Shown here in pieces: positions 38,448 to 64,000 of a stretch of 64,000 nucleotides of DNA (positions within the stretch are counted from its first letter, which is position 1; every line of letters starts with the position of its first letter). The stretch lies in the NCBI GenBank assembly GCA_030280995.1, contig JASXTE010000012.1, positions 13,633,501 to 13,697,500 on the forward strand, read 5' to 3'. Origin of the DNA: Hemileia vastatrix. Taxonomy: Eukaryota > Basidiomycota > Pucciniomycetes > Pucciniales > Zaghouaniaceae. The position numbers and the translations under genes are program-made. Under the pieces are notes generated by a model that saw only the letters and a list, made by a program, of their open reading frames with translations, did not search any database and had not been told where the DNA came from.

Positions 38448-38518
38448 ATAGAACCTGGTAGTTCTTTGGAATCTCTGTTTTCTTTGTTTGGCTCTCTTTG
38501 CTGTTTTGTTCTGGAAGA

Positions 38519-39962: not shown

Positions 39963-39974
39963 CTCCCTCACTCT
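39963..39974 (-). promoter_or_regulatory. Polypurine tract of D
   Basis: CTCCCTCACTCT on the plus strand, read AGAGTGAGGGAG on the element strand, abuts the 3' LTR as expected for the plus-strand primer. Confidence 0.7.
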
Positions 39975-40010
39975 AAAAAAAACAATAAAAAAATGCTATG
40001 ATTTTTTCTT

Positions 40011-42811: not shown

Positions 42812-43546
42812 TTAAATAATATTCATTTTTAAAAGGGTAGAGATATTGTCTACAATATCTTTTCTATTTGTGGGAGAAGCAGGATAAGGCTTCTTTTTTA
42901 AACTAGTTGGTATATCAGTTAATGGACAAGACAATGAAAGTTTCATTTCCTCTTTAACTAATCCCACTTCATGTGACCCATGAGCAAAGGCCATAGGAAA
43001 AGACTTTATCAAGTTAATGATGGAATCATCATCCTCACCAGAAAGTTGTTCTCCAAAAGAGGCATTGTCAATTTCAGACATAAGGGCATGCATTTCTTTT
43101 GTAGATATTCCTTTATATTGAACTACAGAATTACATGTGTTAAATTCTGGTTTTAATAATTTTTTGGAGGAAGAAATCTTAAATTTTCTTTTCCCATTCA
43201 TCCCCATTGTGAAACATTGGTTTGAAGGATCCAATTTTATGCCATACTTGGTTAAAATATCATTCCCTATAATAAACCAATTGCTTAAGTTATCATTTTT
43301 CATGACAACAAAATCACAAATAGCTCTTACAAAACCATGGTTATATTTAAAAAACACTGTGGCTTTGTATTTACCAATGAGGGACAAAACAGAACCATAC
43401 CCTGTCCAATTTTCAGAAATGATAGGCATCAGTTTTGATTTTTAGTCTTGATCCACTGAAGCAAGTGCTCTTTCAGATACTAGACTTCCTCCAGCTCCAG
43501 AATCCAGAACAACTTCAATGCTGGTTCCATTGATCAAGACTGGTGC
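42812..43546 (-). pseudogene. D aspartic protease and linker
   Basis: The active site is VVLDSGAGGSLVS, in the same frame as gag after one TAG (43547-43549). A further stop follows SVDQD. The remainder (ICDFVVMKND, FIIGNDILTKYGIKLDP) includes the hydrophobic-Gly motif typical of the C-terminal part of retroviral-type proteases, then a linker to reverse transcriptase. The protease cuts the Gag-Pol polyprotein. Confidence 0.87.
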
Positions 43547-44635: not shown

Positions 44636-44746
44636 TTTTACTTTAGATGAAGTAGCTACAGGTAATATTTAAGCATCCTGCACTATATGTTCTTTTAAAG
44701 AGATGTCAGAATATTTTTGTTCATTCAACAATGAGTTCAATTTCTC

Positions 44747-45994
44747 TTAAATGGTTGTTAGTCTTTTTTTCATTCTTTGAAGACTAGATAAACTCTCATT
44801 GATGGTTGCAAAAGATAACTGATTTTTATTTTGAAAAGATGAATAATGGTCATTCAATCTCTTCAGATTCATCTTATCTATCTCCAGCTCCTGACAACAG
44901 ATAGATACAGTGTCTTTTAATTTGGACAAATCATTTTTGATATTTTGCCACAAAGAAACCTTCTTTTCATGAGTTGCTTTATAATTAAACAAATCATCAG
45001 AGACTTTCTGCAATTCACTCCTTAATGATTGATACCCTTTCTCAGTTAATAAACAATTAAACTTCTGAGTTAATTGCATATTGTTCATAATATAATTCTG
45101 CTTTGCAATAATATCTCTCAAATGATCATCATTAATTTTTACTACATCTGGAGTGATTCTAAATAAGGAAACAGAGTAACTTTCCAGACTCTCATAAAAC
45201 TCAGGGTCAAGAGTTTCATCAATTACAGCCATATCAGGGTAAATCATTGAAGTAGCAATTAAAAGTAAAGGATTAGATACATGAGTGATTTGTCTACTAC
45301 TCCCAGCCTCTACTGGTCTCAAGGTTTCATCTTCCCTCTCAGATTTACCTGAAGGAACAGAATCAGCTACAAGAAATGGCACTTGAGAATCAATAGAAGG
45401 GCTTACCAAGGTTTGCTGGGGAAGACCATATTGGATTTTATCCTTCTGACTCCTTGATATGGGTGAGGAGGTGTGGGGTTGACTTGGCTGGGTCTTGACG
45501 GACCTGCCTGAGGCAACTGATTCTGATTTTGAGACAGGTAGTCCCACTGAGTGTTTAACCAATCCCACTTTCTCTGGATGCTGAGGAGCCAATTGTTGAT
45601 GATCCCTGGGGGAAGAGGTTTCCTCTTCTCTTGAAGAAAGGAATCTATCTTTCTTACCTTTTCTTCCAGAGCATCTACTCTTGCCCTTACTCTCAAGTTT
45701 TCTGTACTTAGTTCCTTTATGTGAGTTGACAGATTCTTTACCTGTTGAGGCAATGACATCTTTTTTATTCTGAATCCTTTTGGAAGTTCTTCTGGGAGTT
45801 TTATTACAGGTTTCTGATCCTGAGTTGTGTCTACCAGGATTTCCACTTCTTCCATCTCCACATCCTGTTTGGGGCAAGGATTGATTAATTTGAGATATTT
45901 TTCTTGTCAAAGGAGAACTCACAGAAGTAGCCTCATCATAAGCAATTAAGTCTAGTTCCTCTTCACCTGCAGCAGAAACACTTTGGTCAGCCAT
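44747..45994 (-). CDS. D 5'-proximal ORF, coiled-coil gag-like protein
   Basis: An open frame of about 415 codons from MADQSVSAAGEEELDL (an in-frame upstream Met lies at 46027). The first third is acidic then Ser/Lys/Arg-rich. The C-terminal half is predicted by eye to be helical coiled coil (RSELQKVSDDLFNYK, QNIKNDLSKLKDTVS, NESLSSLQRMKKRLTT). It is the most intact frame of D and lies upstream of the knuckle-bearing gag, separated by about 110 bp with a frame break. It may be the N-terminal part of gag or a separate protein. A second long frame (45403-45861) overlaps it. Confidence 0.65.
   Translation of the reverse strand: MADQSVSAAGEEELDLIAYDEATSVSSPLTRKISQINQSLPQTGCGDGRSGNPGRHNSGSETCNKTPRRTSKRIQNKKDVIASTGKESVNSHKGTKYRKLESKGKSRCSGRKGKKDRFLSSREEETSSPRDHQQLAPQHPEKVGLVKHSVGLPVSKSESVASGRSVKTQPSQPHTSSPISRSQKDKIQYGLPQQTLVSPSIDSQVPFLVADSVPSGKSEREDETLRPVEAGSSRQITHVSNPLLLIATSMIYPDMAVIDETLDPEFYESLESYSVSLFRITPDVVKINDDHLRDIIAKQNYIMNNMQLTQKFNCLLTEKGYQSLRSELQKVSDDLFNYKATHEKKVSLWQNIKNDLSKLKDTVSICCQELEIDKMNLKRLNDHYSSFQNKNQLSFATINESLSSLQRMKKRLTTI
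45403..45861 (-). CDS. Overlapping ORF in D, 152 residues, coiled-coil/Trp-rich
   Basis: Open in another frame within the 44747-45994 ORF. It starts MEMEEVEILVDTTQDQKP, has heptad-like NLSTHIKELSTENLRVRARV and ALEEKVRKIDSFLQE, then WLLSIQRKWDWLNTQWDYL, and ends Pro-rich. It looks more protein-like than the frame it overlaps in this interval, which is low-complexity Ser/Lys/Gly. Either the real gag changes frame here because of old indels or both frames were used. Confidence 0.5.
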   Translation of the reverse strand: MEMEEVEILVDTTQDQKPVIKLPEELPKGFRIKKMSLPQQVKNLSTHIKELSTENLRVRARVDALEEKVRKIDSFLQEKRKPLPPGIINNWLLSIQRKWDWLNTQWDYLSQNQNQLPQAGPSRPSQVNPTPPHPYQGVRRIKSNMVFPSKPW

Positions 45995-46027
45995 TTGAAA
46001 TTCAACTGAAATGAAGAAAGGAGACAA

Positions 46028-46840
46028 TAAGATGAATTAGTCTTTTATTTTTACTTTTTATTTGAAAGAAATAAAATAAAAATAATAATAAAAATTTTTT
46101 AGAATAAAAATCAACTAAATAATAATTAATTTATTAATTCAAAATAATTTAAAACTATGAATATAAAATAATCAACTGAAGAAATAAATAAAAAAAATTT
46201 TATTAATAATTTTATGATAATTATTATCAGGATTTAAATCAACTGATTAATTAACTACCAGGACTTAATTTCAACTGAAGTAATTAAATATTAATTTTAT
46301 TAATTAAAAAAAATTTATTGTAAGGAAAATTTTTCAACTGGAAAAAATAAATTTTAATTTATCAGGACAAAAATTTAACTGAAAATTATAATAATTAATA
46401 TTAAAATATAATTTTTTATTACTTCTAGGACTAAGAACACAATTGCTCTATTATTGTCAACTAGGAAAAATAAAAAATAATATAATTAAAAAAAAATAAT
46501 TCCAAATTACCAGACACCTCCCCCTGTAAAATGAACAAATTAATGCCACTTACAGAGTGCTGAGTAAAAGGAAATACATAGCAGATGAAGAGTGTAAAGT
46601 GACCCACAAATAGTAATTTCAATAATTACCACAAAATATACGATGTTTAGTCAATATATGAACCTAAATTTTGGAGTGCGGTTTGATTCCCGTTTGTAGC
46701 AAAAATTTTTGTCACGTGATTTATGACGTTCTTCATTTTGTCGCTCTCTCATCCTTACAGGTACTTGAATGGCAATGGTCCCTTCAATTTTCTGGCCTCA
46801 AATAACGATGCGCCATCGATAATTCGGGAAGGCCTCCATT
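46028..46840 (-). promoter_or_regulatory. AT-rich leader of D with putative primer-binding site
   Basis: The untranslated region between the 5' LTR and the first ORF. It is extremely AT-rich, with recurring TCAACTGAA and CAGGACTTAA phrases. Directly next to the LTR (about 46817-46840, element strand) is AATGGAGGCCTTCCCGAATT; the TGG after two bases is where a primer-binding site would start. No tRNA assigned. Confidence 0.6.
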
Positions 46841-47630
46841 TGTCAAGGGGTCCTTTGGTCTAGAAGATTTATTCGAGGGTAATACAATGATTTTAAGGGT
46901 TTTAATGGACTCTCAAAGACAAAGTATGTATTTCTTAATCTAATTGATTGTTTTTACTCAAATTATAAGAGGTGTTTAAATATTATTATGTTTTATAGCT
47001 TAGAATTAACTTGATGTAAATACTAATTTTATAAATCATAGAAATAATGATTTATTTATTGTAAGTGTAATAAGTAAATAAGGAATGAATGTTATGAAAA
47101 GCACAAAAGTGAGGGCCCTTTATAGACAAAACATGAGGGAATAAAAGACATGGATTTTACACCATCTACTGTAAGAATGTGAGAAAGAAGATGACTAAAA
47201 GGAGTATATATATGACATAAGAAAATAAATTAATTGGTATGTCAATAAGGGCATCAATTTTTTTAGTAATAAAGTATGAGTTCCTTGGACTTTCACAATT
47301 AATTACATCACAATTAAATTAATTATATTAATTTCACGGAATTCCAGATCTCTCAATGAAGTAATATAATAATCTTAAGGTTTTTTTTATTATAAGTTTA
47401 TTATTAATTTTTATTCCCAATCAACTATACTATTGAGCATGGAGTTAGGGAGTAAAAATGTATGGGACATTTATTTTCATTAATTATTTATACTACTTAA
47501 TATACATAACTAGTTAGTTGTAAGTAATACATAAGAAAATAATTAATTGTTAGTAAGAAAAAGGGGCGTGGCTTCATCTCAGTAAAATAATTAATTATTT
47601 TACCAGGTAAGTCTAGTAGCCTAGCTGACA
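46841..47630 (-). repeat. 5' LTR of D
   Basis: Runs TGTCAAGGGGTCC to CCTAGCTGACA on the plus strand, 790 bp, followed by the target duplication AGGGG. Confidence 0.92.
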
Positions 47631-49371
47631 AGGGGTGTGCCAAGTATGTCAGTAAAGTCAGTGAGGCTTTGGCTGAAGAGGAGGTTAGGGTGAAGAGGGA
47701 AGAGAAGAATATGGTGCAGGTTCCCAAACAGGAGAGGGACCCAGTGGTGGAGCAGTTGGCTGATCTGACAAAACAGCTACATATTTTTGTTCAAGAGGCT
47801 AAAAAGGTCAATAAGGCACCTTCTCAGCATAGAGATTTTGATAGGAGGGCTGGTAGGAGTGATCCTTTGGTCTGCTCTTATTGCAGCAGGAGGGGGCACA
47901 AGTACAATGATTGTTGGGCTCTGAACAAGGATGTGTCTGATGGGAAGGTGGAGTTTGATGGAAGGGTTTTCAAGTTCCCTTATGGTTCATTTGTGAAGCC
48001 CAGTGAGGGGCAGGCTCCTGTTTATTTGGTCAGGAGAAGGGGTGGTCTCAATCAAAGGAGGCCAAGGTTTGAGGAGATTTCTGATTAGGGGAAGTCTTCT
48101 GGTAAGGAAGATGATGATGTCAAAGGAAAGGGAAAGGGGAAGTAGTTTAATAATGTCTCTTTTTCTGCTTCCTTTGGTGGCTTAGAGTAGTATTCTTGTG
48201 GTGGACAGTCAAGTGGTGAATGCTTGGCTGGTGTTTATGATGTGGAAGCAGGAAAGGTGGGAAGGCCTAAGAGTAGTTCTCAGGCACAACCAAATCCAAA
48301 GGCTTTAAAGGTGGATCCTAAGCTGAGTGCAGCTTGGAAGAAGTACAGCAAAGAGGAGCTGTACAAGATGCAGAAGGGTATTGCAGACATGTGCCCCCCT
48401 AGTTTTGGTGCATTGGACATGAATGGTGAGCCAATGCCTATGGATGTTGATTCTGACTCTGATGAGGATGTCCCTTTGGCTTCATTTCCAAGGCCTGCTG
48501 GATTTAGAGGGTCTGGTGAGGGATCTGGTTTGGTTACTGTTGATGGTAAATCTGTTGGTGGTGCTGGTCTCAAGAAGCTTCTAGGACCAAGGTGGTGAAG
48601 CCAAGGGCTCATTTTGAGAGGCCAGTGGTTTCTGGCCAATATAATGTTATGGACTCTGTCCCGGAGAGGATGAATCAGGGTCAGGTTCCCCTTTCTTATG
48701 GGTAATTGTATGCTATCAGTCCTGGGTTGGCTGATAGAAAAAAAAGGTTGTTGAACAGGAGAAGGGTTTCTTCTGGGGAGGTAGAATACATTTGTGATTC
48801 TACTGAAAAGTTTAGTGAGGGGTTGAAAACTCATTTTTATGCTCCTCTGGGTTATTTCAATGTCACTCTGAATGGCAGGGAGGCAAGGGAATTGGTGGAT
48901 TTAGGTTCTCAGATTAACTTGATATCTTTGTTTGAGCCTACTCATCTGGGCCTCCCCATCAAGACTGGTATTGGTTGAAATTTGAGAGGGATTGGTGGCC
49001 ATGTCACTGAATTGGTTGGAACTTCTGAGTTTGTGAAGTTAAATGTTGATGGAGCCTCAGGGAAGGTTCATTTTTATATTGCCAAAGGAACAGTTAAAGC
49101 TGTTTTGGGTGGGCCATTCTTGATGGAATTTCAGGCAAGAATTGGTTATCAGTTTGACATGGGGATCATTTTGGAGTTGACTGGTGAAGATGAGAGAAGG
49201 CTTCACATGAGGTTATCATCTCCTGGAGATGATGTTTGGGAAACCAGGCCTTGTTTGTCTTTCATGTGTCAATGCATTGATTGTTGTAGGAGAAGAAGAG
49301 ATGTGGGTGCTGCCTCTGGTTTTTTGGAATGTGGCTCAGGCTCTAGTGAGGGTCTGTCTTTTTTAGAGTGA
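47631..49371 (+). pseudogene. gag C-terminus and protease of A2
   Basis: It resumes the gag frame after element D with CAKYVSKVSEALAEEEVRV. The zinc knuckle CSYCSRRGHKYNDC is intact (CX2CX4HX4C). A TAG near 48086 replaces a Gln codon; more stops occur near 48145 and 48184. A frameshift after GGAGLKKLL (48575) is followed by a stop-interrupted segment. The protease site reads VDLGSQINLI, so the catalytic DSG has Leu for Ser. The gene ends at TGA 49369-49371, which overlaps the pol start as TGATG. Confidence 0.87.
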
Positions 49372-49651
49372 TGAGGGCTGATCACCCTAGTGCTACAACC
49401 TCTCTCCAAGATGAGGAAATCCCAGGTTGTAGTAGGTCAGCTCCCTTGGAGATATACCAAGTAGATTTTAAAAACTTCTCTTTTTAATGTTTCTCTTCTC
49501 TGCAAGTATTATTCAAGTTTTTTATCAAGTCTCAGTTCTCTCTCAAGATTATCAATTATTTTTAACTCAATTTCAAAAAAAAAGATTGGTTATATATCTT
49601 TATTGAAAGATATAGGGAAAAGCTTTGGGGTGGTGAGAATGGGGTCTAAAA

Positions 49652-49757
49652 GTAAGTCCTCCCGATTGTGCACTGCTAGGGTTTCTTCTGCACCTTTAAA
49701 AAACATTACCTGGGCCACACCTGTGAGCATTGGGGAAATTTCTGGTTATTTTTGTAG
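49652..49757 (+). other. Intron-like 106-bp segment in the pol leader, first copy
   Basis: Begins GTAAGTCC and ends TTATTTTTGTAG. An equal-length relative lies at 50013-50118. Removal would change frame because 106 is not a multiple of three. Splicing is not demonstrated. Confidence 0.35.
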
Positions 49758-50012
49758 GTCAGAAGAATACTCAAGAAAAGAAGATAAAAATTTCAAGATA
49801 ATTCAAGAAAATCAAGAAAAAAAATCTGAAGATAATGAATAAAGAAGATCATAAAGATCAATTTTTGAGCCTCCAGCAAGAGGATAAACTGCACTATTTA
49901 AGAAGAGTGGATTCCAAAGCAGAATCAATATTAGAAGATTTGGAAGATGGAAGTGGAGATGAAGATTTGGGATTGCGGAAAAGTTTTGGAGTGGTGAGAT
50001 TGGGGTCTAAAA

Positions 50013-50118
50013 GTAAGTCCTTCCAATTGTGCACCGCTAGGGTTTCTTCTACACCTTTCAAAAACATTACCTGGGCCACACATGTGAGCAATGTGGAAAC
50101 CCTTGATTTTTATTCCAG
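50013..50118 (+). other. Intron-like 106-bp segment in the pol leader, second copy
   Basis: Begins GTAAGTCC and ends TTTTTATTCCAG. Same length as the first copy, consistent with tandem duplication of the leader. The pol frame also reads through it. Confidence 0.35.
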
Positions 50119-53100
50119 GTCTGGTGATGAAGATTTCCTAAAGATCCCTCAAGTTGAAGTTGGAGCCGCAAAGTATAAGAAGGTGGCGCAGAAGATTAGG
50201 CCTGTCAATGAGCCTATGCCTGTGGTATTGAATCCCCCGCTGAAGAGACCTCCATTGTCAAGTGATCTGTACTGTACTCCTTTGGTGAAGAATCCTCCAG
50301 ATTTTGTAGAGACGGCTAGGGTGACTGTGGAAAGGTTGAAAGTTGTTAATTTTGGTCCTGATGGGTGTTTGTCTGAAGAAGAAAAGAAGTTGTTTTTGCA
50401 CGTTATTGTGCTAAGGGAAAAAGCTGTGGCATTTGCTGAGGAGGATAGGGGTGTATTGAAACTCTCTTATGGGGAACCTTATCTGATTCCTGTGGTTTGT
50501 CATGAACCTTGGCAAATAAAACCTATTCTGATTCCAGCTGCTATCAGAGAGGATTTTGTGGAGATTTTTAGGGAAAGAGTCAGGACTGGGTTATACGAAC
50601 AATCAACATCCAGTTACTCAAGTCCGTTTATCTTTGTAAAGAAGCAGAATGGAAAGTTGAGGGTGGTTTACGATCTTAGAGTCTTTAATAGAGTCACAAT
50701 CAAGGATGCTGGTATGCCACCAAGTGCAGAGGATTTTGTTAAAGCTTTTTCTGGAAGGGTGTGTTATGGATTGGGTGATATTATGGGTGGTTATGATGAG
50801 AGGGAACTCCATACGGATTCAAGGCCTCTCAAAACTTTTGAGACTCCTTTGGCAAGATTTCAGCTCACTAGGTTGCCTCAAGGAGCAACTAATTCAGTGG
50901 AAGTTTATCAAGCACAGATGGCTTAGATTTTGCAGGATGAGGTCCCTACTCATGCTGGTATTCTTTTTGATGATGTTGGAATTAAAGGACCATCCACTGC
51001 TTAAGGTAATGTGGTACTAAAATAGAATCCTGGTATAAGGAGGTTTGTTTGGGAATATGCAATAACTCTAGAGAGTGTGTTGTTTAGGATTGAAGAGGCT
51101 GGTTCGACCATTTCTGGGTCAAAATTCTGTTGTTGTGTTCCTGCTTTGGAAATTCTGGGTCATGTGGTAAGTTGAGACAGAAGGATTATGGCAAAGAAAA
51201 AGATTAATAAAATTTAGTCATGGCCAAGGCCAAAAAATACTACTGAAGTCAGGGTATTTTTGGGTGTGTGTGTTTATGTCAGGATTTATATAAAGTATTT
51301 TTTTTGTTGGCTTCACCTTTAAGGAGGCTGACCAGGAAAGATGCAGATTTGGAATGGACTGAAGAGTGGGAAGAGGCTTTTCAGAAGTTGAAGAAGGTGG
51401 CTGGTGAAGATATTGTCCTTCACAATTTGGATTATGGTCTTATGGCTGGAAAAATTTATCTGGCGGTGGACTCAAGCTATATTGATGCTGGTGCTGTTTT
51501 GTCTCAGGAAGATAAAACTGGGAGGGTCAGACCAGTAAGGTATGAGTCTATGGTGTTTAACAAAGTGGAATCTAGGTGCTCTCAGCCTAAGTTGGAATCG
51601 TGTGGTATAGCAAAAATTTTGAATAAGCTACAAACTGTTTTGTGGGGGCAGAATTTTGAGCTTCAGGTGGATGAAAAATCTCTGGTTCAGATGATCAACA
51701 CACCTTGTCTTCGGAATGCTCCAATGACTAGGTGGGTGGCATTTATTCAACATTTTTCTTTTGACCTGGTACACAAACCGGGAAAAAAGTTTACAATGCC
51801 TGATGGATTATCAAGGAGGCCACCTACAGATGAGGATTCTGATTCTGAAGATTTTGATGAAGATGTTCCAGTGGTTAGGGCCAGCACAAAGGGTGCTGAT
51901 GATTTTTCTCTCCTCCCCCTTGATACTAAACTGGATGATTGTTCTGACGTCCCCCAAAAGGTTAAACTGGCTGGATCTGATCTTGATTCTGGTGATCAGA
52001 ACGCTTTTGTTGATGAAGATGGAGTTGTTGTTTGGGGCAGCTCAAAGTTGGAGAGTGGTGTCTTTGTTAGCAAACTGGATTCTCATAAGATTCAGTGGAA
52101 TAAGGAGGATGTGCCAAAATTTAAAGATTGGTGTCATGGTTGGGCTGGCCAATTGGCTCATCTTTACACTGATGATTTTGATGAAAGTGTTGTACCCTTG
52201 GATTTTGTTTTGTTGGATTTTGATAGTGAGACCTGGGGTCAGTCTGGGTTTTATTTCACTGTGGTGGAATATCTGTTGACCTTGAAGAGGCCAGATAGTT
52301 GTGATGATGATACTTGGCTGGCAATCAAGAAGAAGAGTCCTGGCTTCTATGTGTCAGGAAGAAGACTGATGAGAAGGAGGCATCCTAATCCTCAAGTTGT
52401 GGTGACTCAGAAGAAGGGTCAGGAAGTTGTGTTGAAGTCCTTGCATGAAGACCTTGGTCATAGAGGCTTTGGGGCGACTGATCAAAGAGTAGCAGACAGA
52501 TTTCGTTGGCCAGGTATGAAGTTGGCTGTGCAGGGTTGGGTTCAATCTTGTGAAGAATGTCAAAGAAGAAGTCATTTGAAACCTAAAGAGGTTGGCCGTG
52601 CTGCTGGTGAGACAACTGTGTTTGGAAGATTCAGTCTGGATGCTGTCCATATTAAAGAGGGCAGGTATAAATACTTGATTTTTGCTAGGGATGATTTGTC
52701 TGGTTGGGTTGAGGCAGTCCCTCTGGTTAATTTGACTGCCAAGAACGTGGTAGAATTTTTTAAGAAAGAGTGGGTTTATAGATATGGGTTGATGAAGTTG
52801 GTGACTGTTGATGGTGGGCCAGATTTTGGAGCTGAATTTAAAGAAGCTGTGGAAAGTGTTGGCTCTAAAGTTAGAGTAGCAAAACCCTATTATCCTGAAG
52901 CTGAAGGCATGTTTGAATGAGGCCATCAAGTTATCAAGAATGCTTTGGTGAAAATGTGTGGAGATAGTGCTGAAAAGTGGAGGCATTATTTACCCTTGGT
53001 GTTATTTTCTGATAGGGTCACTGTGAAGAGGACAACTGGATATTCTCCTTATAAATTAATTTTTAATCAGAAAGCGGTTCTGCCAGTGGACTTGGATTCT

Positions 53101-53505
53101 GTATCATATCTTGGAATTGATTGGGATGATCTGTGCTCAACAGAAGATTTGCTCTGCTCCAGGATGCAACAGTTGGAATGTAGAGAGGAATATCAGGAGA
53201 AGGCATACTCTAGAATGATGAAGATAAGAAATCAATCAGTCAGATACTGGGACAAGAATTTGGCTCATAGAATCAGGAATCCCTTGAAACCTGGTTGTTT
53301 TGTTTTGGTTTATAATAGAAGTTTGGAGAGTTAGTGGGGAAAGATGTTTTCTGACAGATGGAATGGACCTTACAGAGTCAGATCTCAGGCGTCTGGAGGT
53401 TCTTATGTTTTGGAAGAGTTGGATGGTGCAGTCTTAAAGAAGAGAGTGGCTGCAGATCAGGTGAAGAGGTTTTATTGCAGAGGCACAAAACATGAAGAAG
53501 ATTGA

Positions 53506-54779: not shown

Positions 54780-56354
54780 TCATTGTCTGGATGATGAAGC
54801 TTCTGGAGGCTGTTTTGTATTGTGTTGGTGTTTTTGCTTTTTGTTGGGATTGTGGGAAGCGCTGTGATCTTTGAAGTGGATCCTGCTGGAAATATGGTAC
54901 AGGTTGTAATGGGCAGGAATTGGATTAGAAGGAAGTTCAGAGAAGGAAGAAGAAGAGGAAGTAATGAAGTGTTGGAAGGTGTGCTTAATGATCCTAGACA
55001 TCTTCCAGTGGTCATCCAACAGTCGTTTTCTCAGGGATTTCTCAAAGTCATTTAAAGGTCCATGGAGGGCAATGGCTTTCAGCATGTTAGAAAACATGGT
55101 GCTAAGGTGTTTCTTCATGTCTCCATAATCCAAGGTTAAGGAATTTTCAAGAGGTTGGCCAACTCCAATAGTAGATTCAGGGGGAGGGGTGCCAACTGGA
55201 CAAGAAAAATTGGATCAGTAATTATTTTTTTGGTTGCTGAAGAAATGGGATGAATTAATTTGGTACTTACATATTGGGAGCTCATCAAATTTGTAAGCGG
55301 CCGGGATTTGGATTTCTGAAGATTTTGAAAGGGTGATAGTTTGGGGATCAATCAGGGAAAGATATGGATTCTCTTGGTCTTCCTCTGAAAGGTTTTGAGA
55401 AGGTTAACTAGGAGGCTTATTTTCCTGGGGACTACTTGGAGCAGCAAGGATGTTGTTAATGTTGTTTATATTTGGGTTGGTTTCAGCTGGAATAGGTGCT
55501 GGTGATGGAGTACTAGGGTTGTTATAGGATGGAGTAGGAGAGGGTGATATGAAAGCTTATTGATCTCTTTTGGATGGAGCTCTTGAAGGAATGGAACTGT
55601 CAGAAGAATAGTTGGCTGAAAGAGGAGAGGTGTAGTTTCTTTGCCTTAACTGGGGGTGAAGATTTTGCTTTGGTGCTGTGTTGGGGGCTCTGGCGCCTTC
55701 CTGAAGTCCTCTGGCAGGTCTCTTAGAATTTTGGGAAAATTTGGTATTTTTCGACCTTGGAAAGGTTGGCTGCATTGCTCTGGGAGCAGTGGGAGGTGGT
55801 TGCTTAGAGTTGTTGTTGTTGGTTGGAGGAATTTGGTTGTTTTCTGGTTGTTTTAGGAAGTTTTGAGCCAGAGTTTCACTGTCTAGTGAGGCAGGCGGGC
55901 TGCCCGACGTCCGCCTGGCCGCCTGGAGGTGGTCTAGCAGCCTAGGGGACGATTTTACAGCTTTTGAATCTGGATTAGCAGAGATAAAAGCTGCTTCTTG
56001 GGGAGCTAAGGCTGGTCTTTTGGGAAGAGTTCTGGAAGCTGAGTTTATGGATCTTCTGGAAGGTTCTGAGGATAAAGAGGAAGAGGATGGACCAAGCTCT
56101 GGGGATCTGGTAGGGGATCTTGAAAGGTATTTATGAGAAGGTGAAGGAGGAAGAATAGGGTAGTTTGCATCTCTGTCACATTTCTTCTTCTTGGAGTAGC
56201 AAGAGTCACAGGCCTTGTTGTAGAGTTTGGCTTCAGGAGCTGGAAGAGTGAATGTGCAAGGTCTGCACATGTTGATGCACTGTTTGCAGGCATAGTCCTT
56301 GGGAGCAGTGAAGCAAGGAAGGTTAGAAGGGTCAACATTAGGAGATCTGGCCAT
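54780..56354 (-). pseudogene. Antisense gene 2 of A2: Zn2Cys6-like protein, near-complete
   Basis: It starts MARSPNVDPSNLPCF at 56354. The cluster reads YACKQCINMCRPCTF, then KACDSCYSKKKKCDRD, giving Cys-X2-Cys-X6-Cys-X15-Cys-X2-Cys-X6-Cys with a basic loop in the second half. A long Ser/Pro/Asn-rich linker follows, containing a GC-rich islet (about 55892-55930) and in-frame stops at 55557-55559 and near 55408. A 75-bp intron (55270-55196, GTAAGT to TTGTCCAG) joins to the last exon with LTLDYGDMKKHLSTM, HGPLNDFEKSLRKRLLDDHW and a basic tail, ending at 54780. Total about 500 codons. Same architecture and intron as in A1. The motif suggests a nuclear DNA-binding protein; this is inference. Confidence 0.78.
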
Positions 56355-56499
56355 AATGCGTGGTGAGGAGGAGATGAAGAAAGAGATAAGAAAAGGTTTG
56401 TCAGTGTCTGGGTAGATGATGAAGTGAAATGCAGAAGTTCAGCGGACTGGCTGTGGCTGTATTCTGCATGGAATTGACTGGGTCCTTTCTATGCAAATT

Positions 56500-56632
56500 C
56501 TAAGTCCCTCAAGACTTTAAACTGAAACTAAGTCCGTCAAGACTTTAAACTGAACACTGTTTTAGTCCCCTAAGACTTTAAACTGAGGATTGTTGGTGGT
56601 TTAGTCCCCCAAGACTATAAACTGAGGAATGG
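56500..56632. repeat. AGTC-N6-GACT hairpin array of A2, block next to gene 2
   Basis: Four copies, read on the plus strand as AGTCCCTCAAGACTTTAAAC and variants, each followed by TTTAAACTGA. The block lies about 150 bp upstream of the gene 2 start (minus strand), as in A1. Confidence 0.73.
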
Positions 56633-56664
56633 TTTTTGTTGTTGGAGTTGGTTTGAAAGATTGC

Positions 56665-56760
56665 AGAGGGTATCCACAGGGGGAGCCTCCAAATTTAGCA
56701 AAGGAAAGTTTGGGGGTAATTGATGGGCTTGAAGCTCTATTCACAATTACCCCAGAATGT
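56665..56760. repeat. GGTAATTG spacer repeat of A2
   Basis: A third copy of the GGGGGTAATTGATGGGCT ... AATTACCCCAGAATG repeat, between the two hairpin blocks. Its counterpart in A1 is at 22160-22240. Confidence 0.62.
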
Positions 56761-56819
56761 TAGTTTTTTCTTTTTGTCTTAATGTGGTTGATCTCTGGTT
56801 CTGGGTTTATGATTTAGGT

Positions 56820-56876
56820 TTTGAGTCCCCCAAGACTATAAAATGAGGATGGTCCCCCAAGACTTAAAACTGAGGG
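56820..56876. repeat. AGTC-N6-GACT hairpin array of A2, block next to gene 1
   Basis: Two copies (AGTCCCCCAAGACTATAAAA and a second lacking the first A). They lie just past the stop of antisense gene 1. Confidence 0.65.
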
Positions 56877-56933
56877 TTGTTTGTGGTTACATCCTATAGA
56901 GGGTGTGGTCAGTTTTTCTTTTCTGAATCAAGA

Positions 56934-57574
56934 TCAAGTACTAGTGGAATTACAGAGGGAATCAAGAGATGAAATGAAGTGTTCAGAATTAGCCTTGAAC
57001 TGGTGGATGGGGTGCCTTCTTTTCTCAATGTCATGTGGATCTCTAGCAGGAGTGGATTGGAAGTAGTGAAGCAGAAGTTGTTTCTGTTGAGATTTGTGTT
57101 GTTGGAACTTGGCCTTAATTGTGGGCAGGTGGTTTGGTGTTGTTGGTGCAATGGATCCTACATTGTCATCATCACCATCAGAAGATGGAGGAACTGAGAA
57201 GTCATCAGTTTTAAAGTTGAAGGAAGAAATGAAAGTTCCTTACCATCAGATGGAGAAGGGACAGTGAAACTTGTGGTTTTAAGGGTTGTGGAACTCTTCT
57301 GGGAAGGGTGTAGCTTTTTGATGATTCTGGGTATCAGGATGGATGGCCTAGATTTTTTGGTGCTGGTAGAAGATGGACCAGGTTGAGATGGAGGCAAAGG
57401 TGTTGCAGAGGATAATGGACCAGGTCTGTAGCAGGTCTTCTTTCTAGAGTAGCAGACATCACAGGACGTTCTGTATGGATGGGCCGGAGATGTGATGGTT
57501 CAGATTAGATTATTGTCAATGCAGTATTGGCAGGGGCCCATGTCAGTAGCAGATTCGAAAAGAAAGCTGAGCAT
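56934..57574 (-). pseudogene. Antisense gene 1 of A2: Zn2Cys6-like protein
   Basis: It starts MLSFLFESATDMGPCQYC at 57574, 49 bp from the 3' LTR. The cluster is CQYCIDNNLI-stop-TITSP, then SCDVCYSRKKTCYRPG. The only missing cysteine, the third, is a TGA (one base from TGC or TGT), giving Cys-X2-Cys-X6-(Cys)-X12-Cys-X2-Cys-X6-Cys. After a Ser/Thr/Pro-rich linker a GTAAGG donor lies exactly where A1 has GTAATC, with an acceptor TTCTCAG. The last exon has QQKQLLLHYFQSTPARDP and IHQFKANSEHFISSLDS and stops at TGA 56934-56936. About 195 codons. Confidence 0.75.
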
Positions 57575-57612: not shown

Positions 57613-57622
57613 GGAGGGAGGA
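57613..57622 (+). promoter_or_regulatory. Polypurine tract of A2
   Basis: GGAGGGAGGA immediately before TGTGGTCTTCC of the 3' LTR. It fixes the inner border of the element and shows the antisense genes are internal. Confidence 0.82.
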
Positions 57623-57897
57623 TGTGGTCTTCCAACATTGGAAGGGTCCTTTGTTGTGCGGTTTAGTGCTGTTTGTGCATGTCTTGATTGACATTGGTTG
57701 AAGAATTGGGCATTTTTCTGGATTTATTCCATGAATACTTTAACTGCAAGTATTTGGGTACTACCATTGGATAGCCCCGGTTCTTCTCTACATTTTATGT
57801 CTTGAGGACATTTTTCATACTCTAAGTTTGAAGGGGTCATTTTCTCGTATTTCATTATAAAAAATAGCTGTTTAATTTTGTTTTACATGTTTTACAG
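57623..57897 (+). repeat. 3' LTR of A2, first 275 bp, cut by A3
   Basis: Begins TGTGGTCTTCCAACATTGG and matches other A LTRs until TTTTACAG at 57897. Uninterrupted copies continue TTTTACGGGCTAACC, so A3 inserted there; the flanking ACAG is the expected left duplication with a G-to-A change. The remainder of this LTR should appear after A3, beyond the window. Confidence 0.87.
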
Positions 57898-58988
57898 TGT
57901 GGTCTTCCAACATTAGCAGGGGCCTTTGTTGTGTGATTTGGCGCTGTTTGTGCATGTCTTAATTGACATCTGTTGAGTAATTGGGTATTTCTCTGGTTTT
58001 ATTCCGTGGATATTGGGTCTGCGGGTATGTGGGTACTACCATTGGATAGCCCCGGTTTTTCTCTATATTTCATGTCTTGTAGACATTTTTCATATCCTAA
58101 GTTTTAAGGGGTCATTTCCTCATTTTTTATTTAAAAAGATAGCTGTTTAATTTTGTTTTTTGTGTTTTACGGGCTAACCTTAAGTCTTAGGGTTAAGTAC
58201 TTAGTACCATTGGATAGGGCTAATTTAGCTCTATATTTTATGTCTCAAGGTTGTTATAGTGAAATTCCGTCTTTTAAAGGTTTTAGTAGTTGTAGCTAGT
58301 TTTTCTAAGTAGATTAGGTGTTTTTATTGGTTTTCTGGCTTCAGGGAGGACGGGCTGCTTCAGGCGCGCCTCCGACGTTGGGTGGCCCGCCCACCTCTGT
58401 TGTAGAAGGTTGGGGAGCGCTTCTGGAGGGTTTTTATTCAATTTGGCGGGTACAGGCGCCAAATTTGTTGGTGTGCATGGGCTCTTAGACAGTGGTCTGT
58501 GTGTGCATAGTGAATAAGACAGTTTGGGGCAACCTTAATTATCATACAACCATCCAGAGGTGATATCATTGTTCCTTACTCAGTTTTCACTGTTTTTTGG
58601 CCACAATTGGCTGTGTTTGTTGCAAGGTTAGTTCTTCATTAAACTTAACTTTAGCAACAGGTTTTCTGGTATAGTCTTGCAAGCTATATCAAGTATTATT
58701 GCTGTCTCTGGTGTGGATTTGCAGCCTACATCAAGTATCTTTGCTTTCTCTGGTGTGGACATTGGTCTACATTTCAGTTCTTTGGTTTGGTAGTCTGTTT
58801 GGGGACTACTTTCTTGGCTCATCAAGCAGTCAAGTGTGTTGAAAAAGGGCTTTAGCAAACAGGAACCAACTTACTTTAGCAAGTAAATCTCACTCTATTT
58901 TTCTAAAGGGACAGGGGATTTTCTCTCTGGTTTTTTTCTCCAACTCCCTTGGTCAAGGCCTATAACTAGTACTATAGGATTGTCTAAA
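57898..58988 (+). repeat. 5' LTR of A3
   Basis: 1091 bp from TGTGGTCTTCCAACATTAG to GATTGTCTAAA; the terminal CA seen in other copies is AA here. A GC-rich islet with GGCGCGCCTCCGACGTTGGG lies at about 58350-58395. Confidence 0.9.
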
Positions 58989-58992
58989 TTTC

Positions 58993-59010
58993 TGGCGCCC
59001 AACGTGGGGT
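58993..59010 (+). other. Primer-binding site of A3
   Basis: TGGCGCCCAACGTGGGGT after a TTTC spacer, identical to A1. Confidence 0.83.
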
Positions 59011-59079
59011 GGAACTTTCTAGTTCTTTAGAATCTCTGTTTTCTTTGGTTGGCTCTTTTTCGTGTTTTGGACTGGAAGA

Positions 59080-61460
59080 ATGGCTTCTGGTTCTGCTATT
59101 CCTGTGGTGACTGTCAGTGGGGGGGAGGGTCCTCCTTCTGTGATGGTTAGGGAGTGTGTTAGGATTAAAACTTGGGATGGTACCAAGTTTAATGGTGAAG
59201 ATGTGAAGTGGTTTCTAGAGAAGTATGAAACTTCTGCTGGAGTGGATGGTGCTTCCTACCTGGACATGGTGAAGCAGATTATTTTCTTCATTGGTGATAG
59301 GTCAGTGGAGAAGGAGATTGTGGCCATGTCTGGCTACAAGAAGAGGGATTGGAAATTGCTGTGTAGGGAAATGGTGGATAGATGGGGTGTCAGGTTCACC
59401 ATGGTGTATCTGAACAAGGTTGTCAGTGAACGGAAATCTTTTGGTGGTGCTGGTAACTTGCATAGTTACAGGAAGTTTCTGCTACAGTTTGATCCTGTGG
59501 TGGAATATTTGGTGGAAGTGGAGGAGCTGGCACATGAAAATGCTGCCCAGGATGTTTTTTTGTCTGCCCTGGCTAGAGATTTCAGGATGGATGTGTTGAA
59601 GGAGCTGTCAAGGAAGGACTTGATGAAGACTCTTTATAATGGGGATCAGAAGTTTCCTGCCTTGGACAAGGTGAAGGAGGCTGTGGAGGCCCATTTGAAG
59701 TTATTGGCTGTGGACACCTATCAGACGAGGTGTGCCAAGTATTTCAGCAAAGTCATTGAGGCTTTGGCTGAAGAGGTGGTTAGAGTGAAGAAAGAGGAGA
59801 AGAATATGGTTCAGGTTCCCAAACAGGAGAGGGACCCAGTGGTGGAGCAGTTGGCTGATCTCACAAAGCAGCTGCATATTTTTGTTCAGGAGGCTAAGAA
59901 GATCTATAAGGCACCTTCTCAGCCTAGAGATTTTGATAGGAGGGCTGGTAAGAGTGATCCTTGGGTCTGCTCTTATTGCATCAGGAGGGGGAACAGGTCC
60001 AATGATTGTTGGGTATTGAACAAGGATGTGTCTGAAGGAAAGGTGGAATTTGATGGCAGGGTTTTCAAGTTCCCTGACAGTTCATTTGTAAAGCCCAGGA
60101 GGGGTAGGCTCCTGTTGATCTGGTCAGGAGAAGGGGTGGTCTCAATCAAAGGAGGTTAAGATTTGAGGAGATTCCTGAGCAAGGGAAGTCTTCTGGTAAA
60201 GAGGATGATGAAGTCAAGGGAAAGGGGAAGGAGGTCAATAAGGTCTCTTTTTCTACTTCCTTTGGTGGTTTGGAGTTGTATTCTTGTGGTGGGCAGTCAA
60301 GTGGGGAATGCTTGGCTGGTGTTTATGATGTGGAAGCAGGAAAGGTGGGAAGGCCTAAGAGCAGTTCTCAGGCCCAACCAAAGCCAAAGGCTTCAAAGGT
60401 GGATCCTAAGCTTAGTGCAGCTAGGAAGAAGTACAGAAAAGAGGAGCTGTACAATATGCAGGAGGGTATGGCTGACATGGGCCCCCCTAGTTTTGGTGCA
60501 TTGGAAATGAATGGTGAGCCAATGCCAATGGAGGTTGATTCTGACTCTGAGGAGGATGTCCCTTTGGCTTCATTGCCAAAGCCTGATGGAGTTAGAAGTT
60601 CTGGTGAGGGATCTGGTTTGGTTCCTGTTAATGGTAAATCTGTTGGTGGTGCTGGTTCTCAAGAAGCTTCTAGGACCAAGGTATTGAAGCACAGAGCTCA
60701 CTTTGAGAGGACAGTAGTTTCTGGTCAAGTTAATGTTATGGATTCTGTCCTGGAAAGGATGAATCAGGGTCAGGTTTCTTTATCTTATAGGGAATTGTAT
60801 GCTATCAGTCCAGGGTTGTCTGATAGACAGAAAAAGTTGTTGACCAGGAGAAGAGTTTCTTCTGGGGAGGTGGAATACATCTGCAATTCTGCGGAAATGT
60901 TTGGTGAGGGGTTGGAAACTCATTTTTCTGCTCCTCTGGGATATGTCAATGTCACTCTGAATGGCAGGGAGGCAAGGGCATTGGTGGATTCAGGTTCTCA
61001 GATAAACCTGATTTCTTTGTTTGAGGCAACTCAATTTGGCCTCCCCATCAAAACTGGTATTGGTGGGAATTTGAGAGGGATCGGTGGCCATGTCCCTAAA
61101 TTGGTTGGAACTTAAGAGTTTGTGAAGTTAGATGTTGGTGGAGCCTCAGGGAAGGTTCATTTTTACATTGCTAAAGTTAATGTAAAAGCAGTTTTAGGCG
61201 GGCCATTCTTGATGTATTTTCAGGCAAGAATTGGTTATCAATTTGATTTGGGAATCAGCTTGGAGTTGACTGGTGAAGACAAAAGGAGGCTTCATATGAG
61301 GTTATCATCCCCTGGAGAGGATGGTTGGGAGACCAGGCCTGGTTTATCTTCAATGTGCCAGTGCATGTATTGTTGCAGGAGAAGGAAGGAAGTGGGTGCT
61401 GCCTCTGGTTTTTTGGAGTGCGGCTCAGGCTCTATTGAGAGTCTGTCTTTTTTAAAGTAA
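59080..61460 (+). pseudogene. gag-protease of A3
   Basis: It starts MASGSAIPVVTVSGGEG; the upstream in-frame Met at 59062 is not shared with A1, so the second Met is preferred. The capsid-like part is open to a frameshift near 60092 (a base lost after FVKP). The knuckle is CSYCIRRGNRSNDC, with Asn for the zinc-binding His. The Gag C-terminus and protease continue from 60180 in another frame with VDSGSQINLISLF, so the DSG active site is intact. A TAA at 61113-61115 interrupts the protease, and VLGGPFLMYF follows. The gene ends at 61460 in a TAATG overlap with pol. Confidence 0.88.
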
Positions 61461-64000
61461 TGAGGGCTGATCACCCTAGTGCTACCACCTCTCCCCAAGA
61501 TGAGGAAATCCCAGGTTGTAGTAGGTCAGATCTCCTGGAGATATACCAAGTGGACTTTCAAACTTCTCTTTTTAATGTTTCTCTTCTCTGCAATTATTCT
61601 TCAAGTTTTTTATCAAGTCTCTGTTCTCTCTCAAGATTCTCAATTATTTTTAATTCAAGCTCAAGGAAGAAGATTGGTTATATATCTTTATTCAAAGATA
61701 TGCGGAAAAGTTTTGGAGTGGTGAGATTGGGGTCTAAAAGTAAGTCTTCCCAATTGTGCACCGCTAGGGTTTCTTCTACACCTTTTAAAGACATTACCTT
61801 GTCCACACATGTGAGCATTGGGGAAACCCCTGTTTATTTTTGTAGGACAGAAGAAAACTCAAGAAAAGATGAAAAAAATTTCAAGATAATTCATGAAAAT
61901 CAAGAAAAAAATCTGAAGATAATGAAGAAAGTAGATCATCAAGATCAATTTTTGGACCTCCAGCATGAGGTTAAACTGCAGAAAATTATGAAGAAAGGAG
62001 ATCATCAAGATCAATTTTTTGACCTCCAGCATGAGGTTAAACTGCAGAAAATTATGAAGAAAGAAGATCATCAAGATCAATTTTCGGGCCTCCAGCATTA
62101 GGTTAAACTGCAGAAAATTATGAAATAAGAAGATCATCAAGATCAATTTTTGGGCCTCCAGCATGAGGATAAACTGCACAATTTTAAAAGAGTTGATTCT
62201 GAAGATGAACAAGATTTGATGATTTGGAAGACGGAAGTGAAGATGAAGATTTGGTATTGCGGAAAAGTTTTGGAGTGGTGAGATTGGGGTCTAAAAGTAA
62301 GTCCTCTCAATTGTGCACTGCTAGGGTTTCTTCTACACCTTTCCAAAACATTACCTTGGCCACACATGTGAGCAATGGGGAAACCCTTGATTTTTGTTCC
62401 AATTCTGGTGGTGAAGATTTCGGGAAGATCCCTCAAGTTGAAGGTGGAGCGGCAAAGTATAAGAATGTAGTGCAGAAGATTAGGCCTGTTAATGAGCCTA
62501 TGCCTGTGGGTTTGAATCTGACCTTGAAGAGACCTCCTTTGTCAAGAGATCTGTACTTTACTCCTTTGGTGAAGAATCCTCCAGAATTTGTAGAGACGGC
62601 TAGGGTGACTGTGGAAAGGTTGAAAGTTGTTAATTTTGGTCCTGATGGGTGGTTGTCTGAAGAAGAAAAAAAGTTGTTTTTGCACATTATTGTGCTAAGG
62701 GAAAAAGCTGTGGCTTTTGTTGAAGAGGAAAGGGGTGTGTTGAAGCCGTCTTATGGGGAACCTTACTTTATTCCTTTGGTTTTTCATGAACCTTGGCAAA
62801 TCAAACCTATTCCAATTCCAGCTGCTATCAGAGAGAAGTTTGTGGAGATTGTTAGGGAAAGATTCAGGACTTAGTTATATGAGCAATCGACATCCAGTTA
62901 CTCAAGTCCAGTTTTCTGTGTAAAGAAGCAGAATGGAAAGCTGAGGGTGGTTCATGATCTTAGAGCCTTGAATAGAGTCACTATCAAGGACGCTGGTATG
63001 CCACCAAGTTCAGAGGATTTTTTTGAAGCTTTTGCTGGAAGGGTGTGTTATGGTTTGGGTGATATTATGGCTGGTTATGATGAGAGGGAACTTTATACGG
63101 ATTCAAGGCCTCTCACAACTTTTGAGACTCCTTTGGGAAGATTTCAACTCACTAGGTTGCCTCAAGGAGCAACTAATTCAGTGGCGGTATATCATGCACA
63201 GATGGCTTAGATTTTGCAGGATGAGGTTCCTAATCATGCTGGTATTTTTATTGATGATGGTGGAATTAAAAGACCATCCACTGATTATGATAATGAGGTG
63301 TTAGAGGAGAACCCTGGTATAAGGAGGTTTGTTTTGGAATATGCAATAACTCTAGAGAGAGTGTTGTTTAGGATTGAAGAGGCTGGTTTGACCATTTCAG
63401 GGTCAAAATTCTGTTGTTGTGTTCCTGCTTTGGAAATTCTGGGTCATGTGGTATGTAAAGAGGGAAGGATTATGGCGAAGAAGAAGATTAATAATATCCA
63501 GTCATGACCAAGGCCTAAAAATACTACTGAAGTCAGGGGATTTTTGGGTGTATGTGTATATGACAGGATTTTTATTAAGGATTTTTCTTTGTTTGCTTCA
63601 CCTTTAAGGAGGTTGACCAGGAAAGATGCAGATTGGGAATGGACTGAAGAATGTTAATCAGAAGTTAAAAAGGGTTGTTGGTGAAGATATTGTTCTTCAT
63701 TAGTTGGATTATGGCGTTGGTGCTGGAAAAATCTATCTGGCAGTGGACTCAATCTATATTGCTGCTGGTGCTGTTTTGTCTCAGGAAGATAAAACTGGGA
63801 GTGTCAGACCAGTAAGGTATGAGTCTGTGGTGTTTAATGAGGTGGAATCTAGGTATTCTCAACCTAAGTTGGAACTGTGTGGGGTAGCAAAAATTTTGAA
63901 GAAGCTACAGACTGTTTTGTGGGGGAGCATTTTGAGCTGCAGGTGGATGAAAAATCTTTAGTTCAGATGATCAATACACCTAGTCTTCCAAATGCTCCAA
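61460..64000 (+). pseudogene. pol of A3, leader to RNase H, continues beyond window
   Basis: It starts at the ATG of TAATG (MRADHPSATTSPQDEE). The leader is open for 213 codons through the first GVVRLGSKSK segment and into a 66-bp tandem repeat, ending at a TAG in its third copy (62099-62101). After a frame change near 62220 the second leader segment and the reverse transcriptase follow: RVTIKDAG, CYGLGDIMAGYDER, LPQGATNS and FIDDGGIKR. Stops are at about 62873 (TAG), 63208 (TAG, the same Trp codon as in A2) and 63506 (TGA). RNase H has IYLAVDSIYIAAG and continues to the window edge. Confidence 0.88.
61922..62185 (+). repeat. 66-bp tandem repeat in the A3 pol leader, four copies
   Basis: Units start ATGAAGAAAGTAGATCATCA at 61922, 61988, 62054 and 62120 (the last with an in-frame TAA). 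In frame they encode KKxDHQDQFxxLQHEVKLQKIM. A2 has one copy (about 49838-49900) and A1 about two (26820-26990), so copy number varies between elements. Confidence 0.85.

What the first reader, a model, noticed from the sequence alone, without database searches (positions are those of the whole stretch)
54780..57574. Ty3/Gypsy retrotransposon with two antisense Zn2Cys6-type genes between pol and the 3' LTR
Seen: two minus-strand genes lie between the end of pol (53505) and the polypurine tract and 3' LTR (57613-57623) of A2. Gene 2 has Cys-X2-Cys-X6-Cys-X15-Cys-X2-Cys-X6-Cys intact. Gene 1 has the same with X12 and one Cys codon turned to TGA. The same two genes in the same place occur in A1 (21264-25366). 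Known: this cysteine spacing is that of the fungal Zn2Cys6 (Gal4-type) DNA-binding class, and extra or antisense ORFs near the 3' LTR are described in some plant Ty3 elements and in deltaretroviruses. Inference: the element encodes its own antisense transcription regulators, for self-control or for control of host genes. I do not know a described fungal element with this layout.
Basis: partly seen in the sequence, partly recalled or inferred. Interest (0 to 1): 0.95.

Follow-up and report, generated by a model that had tools for sequence, protein, structure and literature searches.

The report
Retrotransposon with two antisense zinc-cluster genes
A high-copy jumping element of a rust fungus carries, on its opposite strand, two related genes that look like DNA-binding gene switches with the two halves of the usual fungal zinc cluster in swapped order, and selection has kept their proteins, so the element probably brings its own regulators.

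Summary
In a 748-Mb rust-fungus genome (order inferred from pol relatives), element A2 carries two minus-strand genes between pol and the 3' LTR. So do A1, A3 (which runs past the window's end) and 20 of 20 further copies fetched. Each gene has an intron at a fixed place, readable only on the antisense strand. A1/A2 dN/dS is 0.13-0.33 outside gene 2's linker (0.58); pol blocks give 0.22, 0.27 and 0.71. Among copies, shared changes are frame-specifically synonymous in gene 2, as in pol; gene 1 is weaker (exon 1 P 0.005, not with transversions alone; exon 2 not significant). The Zn2Cys6 label needs a correction: Pfam's Zn_clus matches the two cysteine triads in swapped order, at or below its cut-off, which suggests a circularly permuted cluster. 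A dyad, AGTC-N6-GACT, is repeated upstream of gene 2 in 21 of 21 copies; looser dyads lie in the LTR. Most likely the proteins regulate the element's own transcription. Zinc and DNA binding, expression and direction of control are untested. Closest layouts: plant Retand elements, and Boty with antisense gene brtn in Botrytis.

The parts
37354..38427 (+). A2 5' LTR
   Evidence: self-BLAST; 93.6% identical to A2's 3' LTR over 1050 columns, measured over the parts on both sides of A3
38428..53505 (+). A2 gag-pol (decayed), interrupted by a nested LTR element at 39170-47630
   Evidence: Pfam RVT_1 (below its cut-off), RT_RNaseH, Integrase_H2C2, rve (just below its cut-off); nested LTR pair 94% identical
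54780..55195 (-). gene 2 exon 2 with stop codon: about 137 aa, helical hairpin, basic KKQK stretch near the end
   Evidence: helices 25-44 and 51-81 of the 139-aa model, pLDDT block means 66-82 over residues 21-80 (the modelled stretch begins 4 bases inside the intron)
55196..55270 (-). gene 2 intron, 75 nt in A2 (68-72 nt in most other copies), GTAAGTACC...CAG
   Evidence: donor and acceptor at the matching places in A1
55271..56354 (-). gene 2 exon 1, 1084 nt; zinc cluster at residues 23-59; 2 in-frame stops further down in this copy
56355..56933 (.). spacer upstream of gene 2 with an array of AGTC-N6-GACT dyads (exact GTCTTNNNNGAC, minus strand, at 56504, 56532, 56565, 56604, 56825, 56852)
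56934..57193 (-). gene 1 exon 2 with stop codon
57194..57243 (-). gene 1 intron, 50 nt, GTAAGG...CTTCTCAG
   Evidence: same place, 49-51 nt, in 20 of 20 fetched copies
57244..57574 (-). gene 1 exon 1 with the half-swapped zinc cluster; third Cys codon is TGA in this copy
57613..57622 (+). polypurine tract
   Evidence: sequence
57623..57897 (+). first 275 bp of A2's 3' LTR, interrupted here by A3; dyads at 57681 and 57799
57898..64000 (+). A3: copy of the same family nested in A2's 3' LTR (5' LTR 57898-58988, then gag-pol; its pol end, both antisense genes and 3' LTR lie just beyond the window, in L042)
   Evidence: LTR pair 96.2% identical
21216..31037 (-). A1: more diverged copy on the minus strand (5' LTR 80-82% identical to those of A2 and A3), antisense genes on the plus strand from 21264; 3' part of pol missing, insertion in gene 2, 3' LTR broken by further LTR pieces

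Best explanation
The two antisense genes are standing genes of a high-copy Ty3/Gypsy family. They encode two paralogous proteins, gene 1 about 196 aa and gene 2 about 500 aa in open copies. Each has an N-terminal Zn2Cys6-like cluster in circularly permuted order (the C-x2-C-x6-C half that normally comes second comes first; the basic C-D-x-C-x-S-K/R-K-K-x-C half comes last) and a Ser/Pro/Asn-rich linker; gene 2 adds a helical hairpin and a basic stretch. They most likely act in the nucleus as DNA-binding regulators of the element's own promoters. Gene 1 has only 48 bp between its ATG and the 3' LTR, so its transcript should start in or next to that LTR (inferred). Gene 2 would start in the spacer that holds the AGTC-N6-GACT array, a plausible binding site for a dimer; looser GTC-N5/6-GAC dyads lie near the LTR start, where both the sense U3 and gene 1's upstream region are. 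The result would be a self-regulating circuit. Shown: anatomy, introns, conserved frames and cysteines, dyad array. Inferred: expression, zinc binding, DNA binding, targets, sign of regulation.
For: Same layout in 20 of 20 fetched copies and in A1, A2, A3. GT..AG introns at fixed places on the antisense strand: gene 1 in 21 of 21 rows, gene 2 donor 21 of 21, acceptor 19 of 21; gene 1's intron is 44% identical between A1 and A2 while the exons keep frame. A1/A2 dN/dS: gene 1 exons 0.33 and 0.21, gene 2 zinc part 0.17, exon 2 0.13; pol blocks 0.22, 0.27, 0.71. Shared against singleton changes, syn/nonsyn: gene 2 exon 2 44/20 vs 34/109, exon 1 86/77 vs 60/172, pol 31/8 vs 46/116; the other two frames show no excess, and transversions alone keep it for gene 2 and pol. 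Pfam Zn_clus at E up to 10 matches 12 of 12 gene 1 and 12 of 13 gene 2 members. Of ten gene 1 proteins scanned singly, seven have their best stretch at residues 13-30 = profile 17-35 and three, all with the first Cys lost, at residues 36-50 = profile 1-15; gene 2's is residues 47-62 = profile 1-16. The clusters of gene 1 and gene 2 are paralogous, 38% identity over 39 columns, E 2e-6. Dyads: spacers 153 seen, 3.8 expected; LTR 30 vs 5.2; gene 2 bodies 1 vs 8 (base-composition shuffles); 142 of 151 AGTCTT in spacers have GAC at the right distance.
Against: Zn_clus scores stay at or below Pfam's cut-off (best 21.0 bits, cut-off 21; gene 2 E 0.31 at best). My own small profiles were mixed: gene 1 scored highest on the permuted order (mean 10.8 bits; first half twice 8.5, canonical 8.2, second half twice 6.5), but gene 2 scored highest on first half twice (11.5; canonical 10.3, second half twice 2.0, permuted 0.1). 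No confident structure of the cluster. Gene 1 exon 2 shows no excess of shared synonymous change (P 0.49), and exon 1 loses it with transversions alone (P 0.2). The two LTR dyads are no better conserved than the rest of the LTR (rank fractions 0.63 and 0.115). Spacer dyads are tandem copies, so few independent events. No expression data. 12 of 20 copies fail the test of a stop-free gene 1 exon 1 with all six Cys.
Confidence: 0.55

Rival explanations
1. The proteins are element genes and bind nucleic acid, but serve another step: integration targeting, nuclear import, RNA packaging or chromatin tethering.
For: Selection on the proteins does not tell the step served; gene 2's C-terminal part is conserved and helical and three copies of it had no Pfam match up to E 10.
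Against: The dyad array sits upstream of gene 2 in 21 of 21 rows; the second triad resembles the DNA-reading half of Gal4-type factors (the role of that half is recalled).
Confidence: 0.25
2. The antisense transcripts matter, not the proteins: they form double-stranded RNA that holds the element in check, and the frames are leftovers of a captured gene.
For: Antisense RNA roles are discussed for other elements (passages of PMC7264820).
Against: Amino-acid-level selection in gene 2, frame-specific, at a strength like pol's for exon 2; kept splice sites.
Confidence: 0.08
3. Host regulator genes were carried along without use to the element; the apparent selection is left over from the host.
For: Many copies are decayed: only 49 of the 144 scored places have no stop in gene 2 exon 1 (my count's table). 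No relative was found outside, so the source is unknown.
Against: A1 and A2, which share the layout, keep dN/dS 0.13-0.33 outside the linker at dS 0.56-1.65, and close copies share mainly synonymous changes in gene 2.
Confidence: 0.05
4. The cysteine cluster is an unrelated zinc-binding module that only resembles swapped Zn_clus halves. (Not exclusive of the other readings.)
For: Scores at or below the cut-off; gene 2 scored 0.1 bits on the permuted profile and best on a first-half-twice profile; an extra Cys at position 30 of gene 2; weak RING and DUF3716 matches in 2 and 1 of 13 members.
Against: Pfam's own model places gene 1's first triad on its second half and the second triad on its first half; gene 2's cluster is a paralogue of gene 1's.
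Confidence: 0.2

Closest known systems
Retand lineage of plant Ty3/Gypsy elements (PMC11963269; passages including the abstract seen)
   Same: Long region between pol and 3' LTR, antisense ORFs there, 97% of clusters with a TRP28 domain predicted to bind DNA, tandem-repeat arrays in about half; a regulatory role proposed.
   Different: Other host kingdom and another domain (TRP28 against a half-swapped zinc cluster); that text had no hit for 'intron', 'zinc' or 'transcription factor'.
Maize Grande gene23, rice RIRE2, PvRetro13 (PMC7264820; passages seen)
   Same: Antisense extra ORF between pol and 3' LTR; gene23 is transcribed antisense from a promoter upstream of it; some products are nuclear.
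   Different: That review states no clear similarity of these products to other proteins.
Boty-like elements of Botrytis cinerea with antisense gene brtn (Zhao 2011; not read, seen as a citation and in a methods passage of PMC8365987)
   Same: Fungal LTR element with an additional antisense gene.
   Different: Ascomycete host; its product and intron content were not seen by me.
Gal4-type Zn2Cys6 transcription factors (Pfam PF00172)
   Same: Two C-x2-C-x6-C triads; basic triad CD-x-C-x-S-K/R-K-K-x-C.
   Different: Order of the two halves reversed, linker 12 or 15; at or below the curated cut-off.
HTLV-1 HBZ (recalled; only mention antisense genes of HTLV)
   Same: Antisense regulator made from the 3' LTR side.
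   Different: bZIP protein of an animal retrovirus; no relation in sequence is claimed.

Membership tests
Ty3/Gypsy LTR retrotransposon | LTR pair, primer-binding site and polypurine tract, pol order RT-RH-IN | tested here: met
   LTR pairs; TGGCGCC just after the LTR (as a primer-binding site: recalled) and GAGGGAGGA before it; RVT_1, RT_RNaseH, Integrase_H2C2, rve in that order, RVT_1 and rve below their cut-offs in these decayed frames
Zn2Cys6 (Zn_clus, PF00172) | C-x2-C-x6-C-x(5-12)-C-x2-C-x(6-8)-C (spacing recalled) | tested here: inconclusive
   gene 1 fits with linker 12 (all six Cys in 8 of 12 stop-free exon 1 rows); gene 2 has linker 15, outside the recalled range (its six Cys kept in 20 or 21 of 21 rows)
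Zn2Cys6 (Zn_clus, PF00172) | match to the whole profile, in order, over the curated cut-off | tested here: not met
   halves match in swapped order; one of ten gene 1 proteins reaches 21.0 bits at a cut-off of 21, nine lie below; gene 2 at most 11.5 bits in the rows printed
Zn2Cys6 (Zn_clus, PF00172) | two-zinc six-cysteine fold | tested here: inconclusive
   AlphaFold2 on a single sequence, mean pLDDT 52
Zn2Cys6 (Zn_clus, PF00172) | binds DNA at paired triplet half-sites (recalled) | not testable with these tools
   only dyads in suitable places
Retand-like antisense-ORF elements | antisense ORFs between pol and 3' LTR | tested here: met
   20 of 20 fetched copies (chosen by stop-free gene 2 matches), plus A1, A2, A3
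Retand-like antisense-ORF elements | TRP28 domain (PF04195) | tested here: not met
   PF04195 is not listed in the Pfam scans of the antisense proteins up to E 10 (HMMER's filters drop most weak matches)

The most novel reading that the evidence does not exclude
A fungal retrotransposon family has evolved a pair of circularly permuted zinc-cluster transcription factors, encoded by spliced antisense genes, that bind dyads upstream of gene 2 and in the LTR and so run the element's own two-strand regulatory circuit; the permuted cluster would be a zinc-cluster architecture not described before.
Probability: 0.35. Interest if true: 0.88.

Novelty: new variant of a known kind. Interest (0 to 1): 0.77.

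Why it matters
What the antisense genes near the 3' LTR of plant elements do is still open. Here is a fungal family whose products have a recognisable DNA-binding signature, where selection can be measured over many copies and candidate binding sites sit upstream of a gene, so the self-regulation idea becomes testable. A half-swapped Zn2Cys6 cluster would also be a new arrangement of a large fungal transcription-factor class. With very many copies in a 748-Mb genome, such regulators, if active, could also reach host genes that bear the dyad (inference).

Tried and rejected
Protein relatives outside the genome: none for gene 2 exon 1 at E up to 0.01 (1254 candidates) or for a 13-row alignment at E up to 10 (only the 7994 candidates sharing most words were scored, and the query is Ser/Pro/Asn-rich, so this is weak absence). 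Gene 1 was not searched there. Viral contigs: none for pol or gene 2. PDB by sequence: two chance-level matches. DUF3716 as another name for the domain: one weak member hit, none in the genome, but nothing rang in the controls either, so absence is not shown. AlphaFold2 on single sequences: useless for the cluster, fair only for the C-terminal hairpin; no fold search was made. Own half-order profiles: mixed. LTR dyads as conserved footprints: not supported. Copy number: not estimated; 15,145 first-look candidates are not confirmed copies. Papers: the listings (titles and starts of abstracts; 10 to 15 rows each, 5, of up to 218 papers) show no zinc-cluster gene antisense in an LTR element; no held paper has both 'circular permutation' and 'Zn2Cys6' (0 papers); the texts of two rust papers had no hit for 'antisense' or 'zinc'. 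The library lacks most subscription papers.
Full report
Host and setting. The window is G000:C103:13633501-13697500 of a 747.6-Mb, 791-contig genome. The pol frame at 51247-52920 has 87 relatives at E up to 1e-5. The highest-scoring ones are unnamed metagenome proteins or bear general labels, and one is labelled as from a Sphingobacteriaceae bin, which I take for contamination; most of the named rest are Austropuccinia psidii, with Puccinia coronata and P. striiformis. The host is therefore taken to be a rust fungus; the species was not identified. The genome is far larger than the 88 Mb given for wheat stem rust in an abstract listed (PMC3579696).

Element anatomy. Self-comparison and the sequence beyond the window show three copies of one family. 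A2 runs from its 5' LTR at 37354 through gag-pol, broken by a nested LTR element at 39170-47630, to pol's stop at 53505, then about 4.1 kb, then the 3' LTR at 57623. A3 is inserted in A2's 3' LTR: its 5' LTR starts at 57898, and its pol end, both antisense genes and 3' LTR lie just past the window. LTR pairs are 96.2% identical in A3 and 93.6% in A2, in line with A2 being the older insertion. A1, on the other strand, is more diverged (its 5' LTR is 80-82% identical to those of A2 and A3; its own LTR pair was not measured) and lacks the 3' part of pol. A1 and A2 share the order LTR - gene 1 - gene 2, with gene 1's ATG 47-48 bp from the LTR.

Genes. Gene 1: exon 1 of 331 nt, intron of 49-51 nt, exon 2 of 260 nt in A2. 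Gene 2: exon 1 of 1084 nt in A2 and 1063-1087 in the others, intron 75 nt in A2 and 68-72 in most others (one copy measured 102, two had no acceptor), exon 2 of 137 codons where open to the usual stop. The 20 fetched copies (L009-L028) were all chosen because gene 2 exon 1 had no stop's table, so they are not a random sample. Of these 20, 20 have parts of both genes in the same order (gene 1 exon 1 is only partly present in two), 18 a recognised LTR beside them and 16 a recognised pol end in reach. Donor and acceptor of gene 1's intron are kept in 21 of 21 rows including A2; gene 2's donor in 21 of 21, its acceptor in 19 of 21. In 8 of 20, gene 2 has no stop in exon 1, a donor and an acceptor, and at least 124 open codons in exon 2 (my count). 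In 8 of 20, gene 1 exon 1 has no stop and all six cysteines.

Selection. Between A1 and A2: gene 1 exon 1 dN/dS 0.33, exon 2 0.21; gene 2 first 135 codons 0.20, zinc part 0.17, distal linker 0.58, exon 2 0.13 (dS 1.65, near saturation). Three pol blocks give 0.22, 0.27 and 0.71. Among copies, changes present in three or more copies, which mostly predate insertion, were compared with changes seen once: pol 31/8 against 46/116 synonymous/nonsynonymous (16 rows); gene 2 exon 2 44/20 against 34/109 (21 rows); gene 2 exon 1 86/77 against 60/172 (21 rows); gene 1 exon 1 22/26 against 32/100 (20 rows, P 0.005; transversions alone P 0.2); gene 1 exon 2 6/12 against 24/56 (21 rows, not significant). 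The two wrong frames of gene 2 and of pol give no excess. So gene 2 is under protein-level selection while the element replicates, as pol is; gene 1 is supported by the older comparison and only weakly by the younger. dS is higher in the antisense genes than in pol between A1 and A2, which may reflect exchange of modules between subfamilies; not followed up.

The domain. Pfam Zn_clus is the family that recurs: 12 of 13 gene 2 members and 12 of 12 gene 1 members, at E up to 10; RING-type and DUF3716 models match 2 and 1 gene 2 members weakly. In gene 2 the second cysteine triad (residues 47-62) matches profile positions 1-16. Of ten gene 1 proteins scanned one by one, seven show two stretches, the better being the first triad on positions 17-35 (the place of the second stretch is not printed); in the other three, which have lost the first Cys, the one stretch is the second triad on positions 1-15. 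The halves are thus in the opposite order to Gal4. A tandem copy of the domain that lost its outer halves would give this arrangement (inference). Small profiles of my own agreed for gene 1 but not for gene 2, which scored best on a first-half-twice model. The clusters of gene 1 and gene 2 align at 38% identity over 39 columns, so they are paralogues. One of ten gene 1 proteins just reaches the curated cut-off and nine do not, so the proteins are not filed as plain members of the family.

Dyads. Exact GTCTTNNNNGAC occurs 20 times in the window against 1.3 in dinucleotide shuffles: 14 in the spacers of A1 and A2, 5 near LTR starts and one (45492) in the nested element. Over 21 rows, GTC-N5/6-GAC occurs 153 times in spacers against 3.8 expected, 30 times in LTR matches (19 rows) against 5.2 and once in gene 2 bodies against 8 (base-composition shuffles); AGTC-N6-GACT was the only four-letter dyad with spacing 0-12 above 40 occurrences, in 21 of 21 spacers. 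Of 151 AGTCTT in the spacers, 142 have GAC at the right distance. Around 145 distinct units, chosen by the dyad itself, about 23 bases are well kept, three positions excepted, while the linkers vary. The copies arose by tandem duplication, so the numbers overstate independence, and the two LTR dyads are not better conserved than other LTR positions.

Reading. The best-supported account is a retrotransposon with its own antisense regulators. Shown: the anatomy, intron-bearing antisense genes, protein-level selection (strong for gene 2, weaker for gene 1) and a half-swapped zinc-cluster signature. Inferred: zinc and DNA binding, the dyads as targets, self-regulation. The layout matches plant Retand elements, including tandem repeats in the same region, but with another domain (passages of PMC11963269); a fungal antisense gene, brtn, is on record (original not read).

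Noticed in passing
53590-53690, 53850-53950, 56660-56760: Three copies of a stretch of about 100 bases holding an inverted repeat (GGGGTAA...TTACCCC or near it) in the pol-LTR region; a partner copy is seen in A1 near 22160-22250.
   Followed up: no
57593-57606: A palindrome-like GAATGTGGACATTC lies between gene 1's ATG and the polypurine tract; also before A3's 3' LTR.
   Followed up: no
18181-18510 and 23772-24063: 19-bp tandem-repeat blocks inside a similar stretch that is inserted in A1's gene 2 and in its 3' LTR region.
   Followed up: partly
1001-3000: Very strong GC skew (up to 0.78) with Pro/His/Ser/Thr-rich minus-strand frames, probably low-complexity sequence.
   Followed up: no
27904-28416: Weak Pfam DUF4100 match between gag and pol of A1 (E 0.0055, under the cut-off).
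   Followed up: no
39170-47630: Nested element inside A2 with chromodomain and integrase zinc-binding matches on the minus strand, LTRs 94% identical.
   Followed up: partly
21216-25402 against 54929-57647: dS between A1 and A2 is higher in the antisense genes (0.56-1.65) than in pol (0.15-0.50), as if modules had been exchanged between subfamilies.
   Followed up: no
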